From the NCBI RefSeq assembly GCF_031877795.1, contig NC_133946.1, forward strand, positions 12,747,144 through 12,811,143: DNA of 64,000 nucleotides, written 5' to 3'. Numbering within the stretch: position 1 is the stretch's first letter; the number at the start of each line of letters is the position of its first letter. This document shows positions 45,401 through 57,400 of this stretch, one piece after another. The notes beneath the pieces were generated by a model. It made no database searches. It had not been told where the DNA came from and worked only from the letters and a program-made list of their open reading frames with translations. Made by a program: the position numbers and the translations under genes. This DNA comes from Strix aluco. Taxonomy: Eukaryota > Chordata > Aves > Strigiformes > Strigidae.

Positions 45401-48400
45401 CAGGTTAGAGCCATAGCTCAGGGGTTAAGTGCTTTCCAGATGTGAAGCATACCACAAGCAGAGCATAGAGGACTGCAAACTTTCTGCTCTTCACTGACCT
45501 CATGAATCGCACGCCTTCCCAGCCATGAGTCTTGCAAGAGCTATTTCAGATCACAGGACTTCCCTGTGACAACCTTACAGTCTTGCTAGGAAGGCCCTTC
45601 TCCTTTTTTGTTTGTACCACTGCCAATAAGTTCTCAGTAAAATCAACCATTCTTTTCATTTTTTGATTTCTTCCTTTCTCTATCCCTATCCCTTCTTTCT
45701 GTTCTTTCCTTTCTCACCTGCACCTTACTGTCTGATGCTGTAGTGAAGAATCTCCTGGCCTTTTATGCTGACTCTATTGCCAAATGGTTATTCCTTTTTT
45801 CTCTTGTCTTCCTTTTATACTTCAGCAGCCCCAGATGGGCACAGTGAAATCAACTTTTCCATCTGTTCCACAGCAGAAAGTATAGCCAGGGAATTTACAA
45901 AGTCAGCAGAAAATGAGGAGGAATACATTTCAAAAAAGACAAAAAAAAAAAGAAAAAAAAAAAAGGAGCTGGGGGAAGAAGTCACTAAACAATATGATGA
46001 ATCAGCATGTCAGTTTGTTTGTCCTTAGAAAAGTAACAGTGAGAAACTACACTAGATGCTCAGTGAAGAGTTATATACTCCAGAACCAAAGCTTATTCCA
46101 GGTGTTTTCTTATACTAAACGTTATTTCCTTATTCAAACTCTGAAAATGGTCTCCAAATGTCCTGTGTATGCAACCACTAGTTAAATTAAACACCACTAT
46201 AAGCTAATATGTTTTTCACATGCTTCATATGAATGCAAATTTTTTTCCCTCGAGTAGCCTGCCTGATGCAGGCAGTGTCATGGTTTTAAGATGCTTTGCA
46301 TAGTGCAAAGGCAGTTCATTAGAACCTGCTAGCAAAACCCAGGGGAAGCAAGCTGAGCACTGCAGCCAAGCTCTCATCTGAGCAGTGAATCATGCCTCAG
46401 ATCTGCTGCCGTGCCAGAGTCTCAGCCCAACAGTACATCTGTAGGTGTGCTGGAGTCATGATTCTATGTGAAGGTGTACCAGCTGAGAAACTGGCCAAAC
46501 TGTTTACTGGCATGTGGAGTTGATCATTTGCTCCCCTTTAACTTGTCATGACAACATATGTGCTGAGCACTAGTGAATGTTCAAGAACACTTCTGGCCAA
46601 GCTTTTGTTTCCTTTAATTTTTTTTCATACAGAGAGACATAATTCAGTAATGGAGAGCTTCCACTATGTAAACCTAACATGCAGCTCTGGCAAGAAAGTT
46701 CATGGAGCCCTCAGTAGGCTGACAGCGACTAGAGAAATTTTTATCACTGCGGACTTTGAGCTTGAAACAAGCCGAAAGGAGGTGACAGGTTGGTTGGAAA
46801 ATAATCCAAGGTGCGGTTTGAAGCTTCTTGCTGTTTGCTCCTTAATTTCTGTATTTTTCACATCTATCTGTATGCAAAATGATAATAAAAAGTATCTCCT
46901 GTTTTGAAAATGAATTTTACTGCTTCAAAAATAGTGAGGGATGGGGATAGTTTCAAAGATCAAAGAGCTGCCCATAGATTAAAGTCTTGTGGTCTGATCA
47001 ATTTTCTTTTAGCCTGGTGGTGTTGTCCTTAAGGATTTCAGACTTGTTCACAGAAGTTGCTTTCTCAATGATTTGCATTGGTTGGCCTTTTTTAATTGGG
47101 TGGATTTTTGTGCATGGTCATTTATAGCAGGTTTCACCCTTGATACTTTTCAGACACATGCGATGTGCGCTGTGCTCGGAAAAAGACTGAAAAGAGGTTC
47201 CGTAAAACCATTCGAACCTTACGGAAGACAGTCAGCAGGGACCAGTTCCGCATTCGTGTCTCTGGCATGGACCACGAAGTGGCCAGAAAGTCTCTCAAGC
47301 TATCAGAACCGCAGCAGTCTTGTGCTGTAGGACAGATGCATGTTGGTAACAGATGTGGTAAGTAAATGTAAATTAGGAACAAACAGTTATGTGTGTTTTA
47401 CTGTTTTGCTCAGGTCTGGTGAGCTTGAGGGGATCGTGGGATGCTTGTCCTTTCTCCTGGACAAGAAGTAGGGCATTACTGTTTGTGCTACTGACATCTG
47501 CCCCTCTATGTATTTATTGTTGGCAGTTGCTGCGTTATAGCGTGGAATAAGGGCTCAGTGCATTGCACTTTGTTATAGTTGATGAACCGCCTACAGTAAG
47601 CTCAAGGTTAGAAAATGTGGGAGTAACGTTGGGCACTAATGGCCTTGACATCATCAGTTATTTTTAAGTCTATATTTAATATCCAGTGTAACACTGTATT
47701 TCTGAACTCGTAAACATTTCATCTCTCCTTCATTGCAAAGAAAAGGCTGAGCAGAGTTTGATAGCCTCATTCTCTTTGCCGATTAAGCTCTGAGTCCCAG
47801 AGAATCTTCATGACAGTTACAAATTCATGGAGAATAGGGGTTTTATAGGCCAGTACTGAGAAAAATCTTAATTATAATGGCACTGGAGGGCACCACCATA
47901 GTGCAGCCCATAATAAATGCTTCCAAAGCACAAAAGTTAAGGAGAGGGGTCAGATGTTATCTTAACAGGGGCCTAACAACCGTGACAGCTAATTCAGGCT
48001 GCATAGGGTAGGCAGCATGTAGGTGGTTTTGTGAATCAGCAAGCCTTTAAAATGCTTGTCAGATTGAATTAGTACATCTTCCAGCAGCAACCCATTCGGC
48101 CCCAGAATAAGTTTTCCAGTCTAGTGTTGCTAACTCTAGAAAAACTTGGATTCGTAGAATAGAAAAATGAATTGGTGTTGTTTAAAACATCTGTGCAAGC
48201 AAGCGGATTAGGGAATTACTCAGGAATTCTGCTGGAAAAAAGCTATAAGTTTTTTCTTTTCTTTTTTTTTGGTAATGTTGTGATAAATCTGAAAAACTTT
48301 GGAAAGCTCACCAAGATGAGTTTGCACGGATGTTTTCAAGCTGTTGTGTTGGATGCTGGAGGAAGGCTTTGAAAAATTGTCTCAATCCATTGTACAGAGC

Positions 48401-54400: not shown

Positions 54401-57400
54401 AAGTTGTCAAGAGAGATCTGATGGGATAAGTTCTCAAATGTAACATTTCAGCATAAGTGTTGGGTTTGGTTCCTGCCTGGGACAGGTTTCCTTCGAGCTC
54501 TGTTAGCTGACCTACTGGTATGCTGGACTCTGAGCAAGTTCAGGAAACCTGAAGTACAGTTTGAAGGTTGAATTTGTATGGTTTTCACATGTGTCAATGT
54601 AAAGTAGCATTCCGTTCAAAACAAAACCAAAACAAAGACACACCCCCTGCGCCCAATGCAAAAAACCCAAACCACCCCAAACTTGACATGTGATTAAAAT
54701 GAAGGGAAAAAGACAAGTTAAGGGGAGATAGCAGAGAGCAGATAGTCTCTAGTGAGGCCACTCAGAGCACTGATTTCTTACAGAGTCATAGTTTTTTGAA
54801 GGAAGGATATTCGCACTGGTCTTTCCGTTGCTTCTGGGTTACCCATAGCCACTTCTCAAAATCACCTTTACTAATCTGGATTGTCTTTCCTTGTCACAGA
54901 ATTGTAAATAGTGCTCTTTCCTTACCTTATTAGGAGTGCTGCAATGAAAGCCTTAATTCATTCATGTTTGTTGAGTTGCACAAAGAGTACAGAGATGAGT
55001 GTTCTGTAGGAATGTTTATAAAATGAAGAAAGGCTTGAGAAGTGTGGAAGCAAATGAATGTGTGTCCTTATGCAGAAGAGGTGTGTGATGGAAAAAGTTA
55101 GAACCAAGAGCTAAGACTTCTTCACTAGCTTTCATTGATAAGCTACAGAGCATTACTTAAGCTGCTGTATTTTATTTTTAAGCTAAGGAGGAACACTCAC
55201 TATTCCACTCAGTGTATCAGCCATAAACAAAACTCTTCATCATTGATCATGACCGGTAGTTAATGCCCTGCTTGTTGTTAGTCATATATCCTGAAATGAA
55301 GCCAAGGCCAATTTAACTTCCTAACAAAAACGGCTATTCACTGAGTGATTTATTGGAGCTGTAAACTAAAACTAACAGTTTATTATCGTAACAGATCTTT
55401 AAAAGGACAGAATTTTTCAGCACAGCTGAACAACTGCAACAGTGTTTTGTGCTTTTCCAGAGCAGGGTAATTATTAAATACTGGCACTGAAGCCAGTTCT
55501 TTTGTGAAAAGCTTGAAAACCAGAATTTCTCAAAGACACCCAGAAATATTGCTGGGCTTGTTAGATGATATTGAGATTGTGTGTTTAGGTACGATCAGTC
55601 GGACTGAGTTAGTGCTATCTACGCACCATACAGAACACAGGAATCCAGTGCACAGCTAACCATTATCCAAGATCCAGTATCAGAGGAATGGCAAGAATAT
55701 TTCTGCTTTAAAAGTCTTTGAGGCACACGTGATGTTTAGTGAATTCGCACGATTACTTGTTGTGCTTGAGGTTTTCACACAATTCAGTAACACCAATAGT
55801 TATGAAGTATGAATATTCAATAATATTAAGATTAAGACACTTATAGAAATCTGGAAGTACATTTTTGGCATCTTGGGTTCAGTACTAAATTATTTCATTT
55901 GGGAGGAGTCCAAGAGTTCTTTAGCTAGAAAGAAGATATAATCAAACATAACTGCACTGTACAGATAAACGAAGAGTACTGGACAGGCCTAGTGTCCAGT
56001 GTAGCCTTGCAACAAAGTGTGAAATCCATTCCAGCTCACAGAAGAGCTCACTAGCAGCAGAGGTTATTGGTGTCTGTTTCAGTTTTACAGGGTGCGTTAG
56101 ATGTTCTACCTGTTGCTAGCATTCAGTTCCGAAACCCTAGCTCCCACCGCCCAAGTAAGGAGGAGAGCAGTTTCATCGTGGGGTTTCAGGTCCTGTGCAG
56201 GCTCACTAACATACCTTCACCTATAATGTCCAGGTTGAAGCAAGTGTGATCTTCCTCTTCCAGATCAGTGCTCACCAGGTGAATATTCTCCTGACGGCTT
56301 CAAACCCTGTCTGCCGTGTCCCCTTGGAACATACCAGCCTGAAGCTGGGAGAGTATCCTGCTTTCCCTGTGGAGGAGGTCTAACAACGAGACATAGCAGT
56401 GCATCCTTGTTTCAGGACTGTGAGACCAAAGGTAAGGTTGAGATTTATTTGATGAACTGCATTGATTCAAGGCAAAAGTAAGTGCTGCTGCTACAAATGG
56501 GGCATTCAAAGAAGAGTCATTTTCCTTTCAAGGATCTCTCCTTCCAGGGGTCTCGTAGTTTGCTGGCCTGCCCTGGTTGCAAGGAAACTCAATAAAGCCT
56601 CAATTCTTTTTATAACTGATTTTTTTTCAAGACTTGAGAAGGGGTTGGGAGATACATCGAAGTTGGTCAGTGAAGTCGTTGATCTGTGAAGTCATATAAA
56701 GGAACAGCAGGGAGGAAAAAAAAGTCTCAAGAGAAAAATCAAGACCAGTATGCCTTATTGACATTTTGGGTTTGAGCACAGCAGCAACGTGAAAATGTGA
56801 AGGAGGGGACTGCAGTCCTGGAGGATAAGTAAGAAAATAGTTTCTTCATGTTTATAATGAGAAACTGGCTTGGATGCCTTGGGGTATACATAAAAAGCTA
56901 GCATTCAGCTTAGCCCTGCAGTACCTCAGACAGCCCTCTAAATTTGATCACAGTGGAGCTGACATGCTGTCAGCTCCCAAGGTTTTCCTCACAGGAGTGA
57001 AAATCAGGTGGGGATCATATCTTTAAAAATGAAGGAATTTCGTCAGCAGCTTAGTTATCTAAAATGTAAAAAGCTGAAAGACAGCTATGAAGTTGTCTTT
57101 GAAAATGCTGATAAAAATATGTGTCCATGGAGACATGAAATGTCAATCAGTGTCTTAAAGCATGGGCAAAAGAACATCACTTTTATCAAAATCACCTGAA
57201 GAAAAAACATTAAGAGAAGATCTACTGCCATAGAGTAGAAATAAGAGTTAGAAATAAGGTCCTGTTGCAAACATTTGGTAGTGGTTTGGATTAAGAGATC
57301 TCTCTACTGTCAGTTAAGATATGTTTACTATTGAGAATTGCAACACAATAGAAGAATTTTGCAGTATGGTTGAAGAATTAATATTACTGGTAATAATGTA

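What the first reader, a model, noticed from the sequence alone, without database searches (positions are those of the whole stretch)
47358..56263. SCUBE2 appears to lack the exon for its first cysteine-rich repeat
Exon 15 ends in phase 1 after HVGNRC, and the next exon found starts in phase 1 with DQCSPGEYS, which aligns with the second repeat of human SCUBE2. An exon of ~170 bases for the first repeat was not seen in the intervening 8.9 kb, the largest intron of the gene, as expected if two introns merged after loss. The joined frame stays open, so a two-repeat protein of 933 residues is predicted against 999 in human (remembered). The repeats take part in SCUBE2 surface binding and sterol-linked Hedgehog release, so losing one could alter activity. 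An overlooked diverged exon or a local assembly gap is possible.
Basis: partly seen in the sequence, partly recalled or inferred. Interest (0 to 1): 0.75.

Follow-up and report, generated by a model that had tools for sequence, protein, structure and literature searches.

The report
Decayed first-repeat exon in bird SCUBE2
A bird gene that helps cells release the Hedgehog growth signal still carries the exon for its first cysteine-rich repeat, but that exon has decayed and holds two stop codons, so the bird most likely makes only the shorter two-repeat protein that other land vertebrates also appear to make by skipping the exon.

Summary
The exon sits at 53963-54127, in the expected order, strand and phase, with AG/GT borders. 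It is a fossil: two in-frame stops, one of six ancestral cysteines lost, two codons missing. Swan CR1 matches it end to end (tblastn E 1.9e-23, 82.8 bits; best of 200 simulated introns 21.9). With swan as sister and emu as outgroup, CR1 has 13 window-only and 0 swan-only changes; the rest has 9 and 10. CR1 is intact in listed proteins of ducks, geese, swan, emu, crocodilians and turtles, and missing or partial in 34 of 34 listed neoavian proteins. Five reptile species have listed proteins both with and without CR1, so the exon looks like an old in-frame cassette whose skipped form took over. Eight literature searches listed no report of this. RNA-seq would show whether the fossil is still spliced in.

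The parts
53963..54127 (+). Decayed CR1 exon (pseudo-exon), 165 nt, phase 1-1; reads [53 protein letters not shown] when joined to the last base of 47154-47357
53998..54000 (+). First in-frame stop (TGA), at the Arg of ERES in swan/emu CR1
54031..54033 (+). Second in-frame stop (TAA), at the Tyr of NGTYQ in swan/emu CR1
53943..53962 (+). Retained acceptor of the pseudo-exon, ATTTTCTTTCTTGTTGCTAG (14 pyrimidines in 17)
54128..54133 (+). Retained donor of the pseudo-exon, GAA|GTAGGG, score 4.62 by a simple matrix (donors of the 20 modelled exons that have one: 1.09-12.3)
47154..47357 (+). Intact exon 15 of the 933-aa model (last spacer exon), ends phase 1
56264..56431 (+). Intact exon for cysteine-rich repeat 2 (CR2)
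59016..59177 (+). Intact exon for cysteine-rich repeat 3 (CR3), three N-glycosylation sequons
44473..44559 (+).
   Evidence: near-identical residues in Sylvia P0008
21300..63401 (+). SCUBE2 coding region: first coding exon to stop codon; 21 exons give 933 aa, 22 give 962 aa

Best explanation
The window holds SCUBE2 of a bird, by elimination on the tree a non-passerine neoavian. The exon for CR1 was an in-frame (phase 1-1) cassette exon that land vertebrates could include or skip. In the ancestry of this bird the skipped form sufficed, purifying selection on the exon ended, and it decayed in place: two nonsense changes, a lost cysteine, a two-codon gap and other substitutions. The gene now makes a protein with nine EGF domains, spacer, two cysteine-rich repeats and a CUB domain. 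Including the exon would end translation after residue 641 of the 933-aa model, before CR2, CR3 and CUB. Shown: the fossil exon, its disabling changes, its accelerated change and the intactness of the other exons. Inferred: that the mRNA skips it, that skipping preceded decay, and that the two-repeat protein works normally.
For: tblastn with database CR1 sequences: swan residues 1-57 match 53962-54126 (E 1.9e-23, 72%), emu 3.1e-22, crocodile 6.3e-20, alligator 7.6e-19, turtle 6.1e-17; the paralogous CR3 and CR2 exons score far lower (43.1 and 37.7 bits for swan, against 82.8); maximum over 200 simulated introns 21.9-24.3 bits. Searching about 5.8 billion proteins with the pseudo-exon alone gave 15 hits of 18 candidates, all 15 SCUBE2 of Anatidae or emu, best E 1.6e-14. 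Pfam PF07699 with X at the stops: 24.5 bits, cut-off 23.1. Identity to swan 41/55 for the pseudo-exon against 53/55 for CR2 and 50/53 for CR3. Relative-rate counts 13 vs 0 in CR1 and 9 vs 10 elsewhere. Listed proteins with and without CR1 in Sphenodon, Chelonoidis, Ahaetulla, Pseudonaja and Anolis sagrei. Tree: window inside birds (100/100), outside the starred passerine and anatid-plus-palaeognath groups, nearest by path Egretta, Athene, Buteo.
Against: No transcript data. The CR1-less proteins of other animals are database gene models; their RNA support was not seen. The splice sites of the fossil are still fair, so inclusion is possible. Neoaves without CR1 are known here only from listed proteins, many of them single or numbered isoforms or filler-bearing models, and the database is clustered at 90% identity (P0012 stands for 610 sequences). 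One search listed 120 of 319 hits. One search did not return the penguin model P0015, nor any crocodilian or turtle, so its silence about other birds means little. Three listed palaeognath proteins (ostrich, two tinamous) also lack CR1, so the loss or skipping may not follow the neoavian border.
Confidence: 0.9

Rival explanations
1. Poison exon: the exon is still spliced into some transcripts, where its stops trigger nonsense-mediated decay and lower or tune SCUBE2 output.
For: Both splice sites persist and score well: 94 of 4,618 AG sites of the window's + strand have as pyrimidine-rich a tract, and 385 of 4,121 GT sites score as high as the donor. Inclusion ends the protein after residue 641.
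Against: Good splice sites are expected in a former exon and show no constraint by themselves. The emperor penguin model (P0015), as modelled, has Phe at the place of the second stop and lacks the two-codon gap, so these features are not evidently shared across Neoaves. That poison exons are often conserved is general knowledge (abstract start of PMC11357089 seen).
Confidence: 0.07
2. Sequencing or assembly error has damaged a functional exon.
For: A single genome assembly was read, and reads are not available here.
Against: No N in the window and the other exons are open. Thirteen window-only residue changes in 55 positions against 9 in 771 elsewhere are hard to explain by base errors. None of the 34 listed neoavian proteins has a full CR1.
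Confidence: 0.02
3. A trimmed exon is used from an internal acceptor after the second stop, adding half a repeat.
For: An in-phase AG at 54045-54046 would give [12 protein letters not shown]. The penguin model P0015 contains such a 3' half.
Against: That acceptor tract has only 5 pyrimidines in 17, and the piece would add three cysteines, an odd number.
Confidence: 0.02

Closest known systems
SCUBE2 CR1 exon of Anatidae and emu (intact in listed proteins)
   Same: Same place in the protein; swan 72% and emu 68% identical end to end
   Different: Open reading frame there; here two stops, one ancestral Cys lost and a two-codon gap
CR1-less SCUBE2 isoforms of mammals and reptiles
   Same: Same arrangement as the protein predicted here: spacer joined directly to CR2
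   Different: In the five reptile species with both forms listed the exon is intact and optional; here it can no longer code for the repeat
Lineage-specific decay of an alternative exon (general phenomenon, recalled)
   Same: In-frame optional exon, disabling mutations, accelerated change
   Different: No difference in kind found; the gene and the bird lineage are the new part

Membership tests
SCUBE2 orthologue | Closest relatives in a protein search are SCUBE2 | tested here: met
   (120 of 2,343 hits listed): rows are named SCUBE2/SCUB2/CEGP1; the few named otherwise (unnamed product, signal peptide protein, hypothetical) align over 99-100% of the query; tree
SCUBE2 orthologue | Nine EGF-like repeats, spacer of five exons, CUB domain on two exons | tested here: met
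   Nine EGF exons, five spacer exons including 44473-44559, CUB PF00431 4.7e-20 over two exons; layout as given in passages of PMC10214685
SCUBE2 orthologue | Signal peptide | tested here: inconclusive
   First exon encodes a leucine-rich start; no predictor was run
Canonical three-repeat SCUBE protein | Three six-cysteine CR motifs, each on one exon (PMC10214685) | tested here: not met
   PF07699 finds two repeats in the 933-aa protein; the CR1 exon has two stops. Filed as a SCUBE2 orthologue with a two-repeat CR domain, not as a three-repeat SCUBE
Pseudo-exon (decayed exon) | Homologous to a functional exon of relatives, same position, strand and phase | tested here: met
Pseudo-exon (decayed exon) | Disabling mutations and loss of constraint | tested here: met
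   Two stops; 13 vs 0 relative-rate counts
Poison exon | Inclusion gives a premature stop | tested here: met
   Stop codon at position 642
Poison exon | Included in some transcripts and subject to decay | not testable with these tools
   No RNA-seq available
Poison exon | Conserved as a stop-bearing exon across relatives | tested here: inconclusive
   Only the penguin model P0015 retains a piece, without the second stop as modelled

The most novel reading that the evidence does not exclude
Early in Neoaves a coding cassette exon of a Hedgehog-release cofactor was converted into a regulated stop-bearing exon, so that these birds both fixed a two-repeat SCUBE2 and gained a splicing switch that lowers its dose.
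Probability: 0.06. Interest if true: 0.65.

Novelty: new member of a known kind. Interest (0 to 1): 0.4.

Why it matters
SCUBE proteins are described as having three CR motifs whose precise functions are unknown (PMC10214685, section 8). Waterfowl and emu, which can encode CR1, and this bird, which cannot, offer a natural comparison for what CR1 does in Hedgehog release, BMP binding or surface binding. It also warns annotators: many bird SCUBE2 models carry filler, in at least two cases translated intron, at this place.

Tried and rejected
Rejected: outright deletion of the exon (fossil found); assembly gap (no N); a functional overlooked exon (two stops); use of a trimmed exon (poor acceptor). 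Led nowhere: repeat, composition and tandem-repeat scans; search_dna_similar against plasmids (no match, not expected to help); solved structures (31 sequences, CUB-domain and a few repeat proteins, none named SCUBE); the genome search 'own' unanswered twice; literature searches for SCUBE2 with avian and exon, or exon loss with Neoaves (one listed paper each, judged from title and abstract start only). Galliformes could not be judged: no galliform protein was among the listed rows. The automatic label 'part' marks best matches of CR1 to CR3, lying after CR2 in the rows checked, so I counted these as without CR1; its 16 'CR1' birds include penguin P0015, which I treat as partial (only the 3' half). 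P0185, held, has other Pfam domains and was left out of the non-bird tally.

Full report
What was checked. I rebuilt the gene on the + strand: 21 coding exons from 21300 to 63401, one open frame, 933 residues. Exons 2 to 19 are phase 1-1; exon 20 ends in phase 0. Exon borders were set with the help of tblastn with recalled human SCUBE2 and splice sites. An intact 87-base spacer exon at 44473-44559 is missing from that model; with it the protein has 962 residues. Pfam finds EGF-type domains, two PF07699 repeats and a CUB domain. The 8,906-base interval is the largest intron between coding exons. The window has no N.

The exon is there, but broken. A six-frame scan showed an open stretch at 54034-54150 that resembles the end of CR1. 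A first tblastn with recalled human CR1 hit 53986-54126, E 2.8e-12. This was then repeated with database sequences: the CR1 of swan, emu, crocodile and alligator hit 53962-54126 and that of turtle 53971-54126 (5 of 5 references), with E-values of 1.9e-23 to 6.1e-17. In 200 introns simulated from the same dinucleotide frequencies the best score for any reference was 24.3 bits, against 64.3-82.8 here. The exon is 53963-54127, 165 bases, phase 1-1, AG before and GT after. In frame it has TGA at 53998-54000 and TAA at 54031-54033. Against swan CR1 it lacks two residues, the first of six cysteines is Trp, and a Tyr has become Cys. With X at the stops it still passes Pfam's cut-off for PF07699, 24.5 bits against 23.1.

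It has lost constraint. Identity to swan is 41/55 for this exon, 53/55 for CR2, 50/53 for CR3 and 50/50 for the second CUB exon. With swan as sister and emu as outgroup, CR1 has 13 window-only and 0 swan-only changes (chi-square 13.0, p 0.0003), while the remaining 771 compared residues have 9 and 10. Five such trios, which share species and are not independent, gave 10-13 window-only against 0-1 in CR1; in none was the window faster in the rest of the protein. The exon is therefore not merely fast-evolving in birds generally.

Which animals have it. The protein search with residues 300-933 gave 2,343 hits, of which 120 were listed. A search with a 91-residue duck stretch around CR1 gave 319, of which 120 were listed. 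A search with the pseudo-exon gave 15, all listed. Together 211 proteins were held. Of 52 bird proteins, 15 have a full CR1: 12 from Anatidae (Cairina, Anas, Anser, Cygnus) and 3 from emu. One, emperor penguin P0015, has only the 3' half behind unrelated residues. The other 36 have none. Those 36 are 33 neoavian (passerines, owl, hawk, heron, vulture, cuckoo, parrots, bustard, gentoo penguin) and 3 palaeognath (ostrich, two tinamous). Many are single or numbered isoforms, and at least 18 of the 36 carry unrelated filler at this place. In two that I compared by eye (P0002, P0020) the filler (..[12 protein letters not shown]..) matches a translated stretch of the window's own intron at 55952-56116, so it is an annotation artefact. 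Absence in such models is weaker evidence than the DNA seen here, and for ostrich and tinamous it may be only an isoform. In the duck search no neoavian bird appeared in the 120 listed rows, although turtles, lizards and fish did; 199 hits were not seen. The pseudo-exon search missed P0015 as well as the crocodilians and turtles, so it is not sensitive enough to prove absence. Clustering at 90% identity could hide members: P0012 stands for 610 sequences. No galliform row was listed, so chickens and relatives are undecided. Among 159 non-bird proteins 120 have CR1, 38 do not, and one (P0185) is another kind of protein; the share with CR1 is inflated because one search selected for it.

Origin of the two-repeat form. 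Five species have listed proteins both with and without CR1: tuatara (P0048, P0041), Chelonoidis (P0130, P0044), Ahaetulla (P0040, P0055), Pseudonaja (P0120, P0117) and Anolis sagrei (P0154, P0086). The other 33 CR1-less non-bird proteins are mammalian, such as dog, cat and sheep. In these 38 proteins the spacer joins CR2 directly (for example ..[12 protein letters not shown]). The exon therefore looks like an old cassette. The simplest history is that the skipped form became sufficient and the exon then decayed. The order of events and the RNA support of these models were not tested. A tree of 45 proteins puts the window inside birds (100/100), outside a passerine group (97/96) and a group of Anatidae plus palaeognaths (97/91), nearest by path to Egretta, Athene, Buteo and Aptenodytes; relations among the remaining lineages are open and the bootstrap had not settled. 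Non-passerine Neoaves is thus by elimination. Full CR1 in emu, Anatidae, crocodilians and turtles makes presence the likely ancestral state for birds.

Consequence. Review PMC10214685 (section 8 read; other passages) says that the functions of the CR motifs are unknown, that CR domains are needed for secretion and surface expression of SCUBE1, and that any one N-glycan there suffices for surface binding. Swan has four sequons in CR1-CR3; the window keeps the three of CR3. PMC4873810 (passages) states that Scube2 without the CR and CUB domains is inactive, whereas PMC12881369 (passages) reports a lesser but real activity. The passages that I saw do not test CR1 alone. I infer a mild or no effect.

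Poison-exon reading. The splice sites remain good: acceptor tract 14/17 pyrimidines, reached by 94 of 4,618 AG sites; donor 4.62, reached by 385 of 4,121 GT sites. Inclusion would end the protein after residue 641 of the 933-aa model. The penguin model has Phe at the place of the second stop and lacks the two-codon gap, so those features are not evidently shared. I keep this reading at low probability.

Literature. Eight searches listed no paper that, from its title or abstract start, concerns CR1 loss in birds; several lists were cut (for example 20 of 54, 8 of 38) and supplements were not searched. I opened passages or a section of three papers only. PMC2697156, on noisy splicing and stop codons in unwanted exons, was seen only as a listing with its abstract start and fits the general mechanism.

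Noticed in passing
   Followed up: partly
55952-56116, and proteins P0001-P0003, P0005-P0007, P0010, P0011, P0013, P0016-P0018, P0020-P0022, P0024, P0026, P0031: Public bird SCUBE2 models carry unrelated filler where CR1 would be; in P0002 and P0020 it matches translated intron of this window, an annotation artefact.
   Followed up: partly
protein P0025 (Willisornis vidua): This passerine model joins the spacer directly to CR3, lacking both CR1 and CR2; real skipping or a prediction error is unknown.
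   Followed up: no
proteins P0124, P0127, P0146, P0151: Numbered isoforms of swan, emu, alligator and crocodile lack four spacer exons as one block, so alternative splicing of the spacer also looks common.
   Followed up: no
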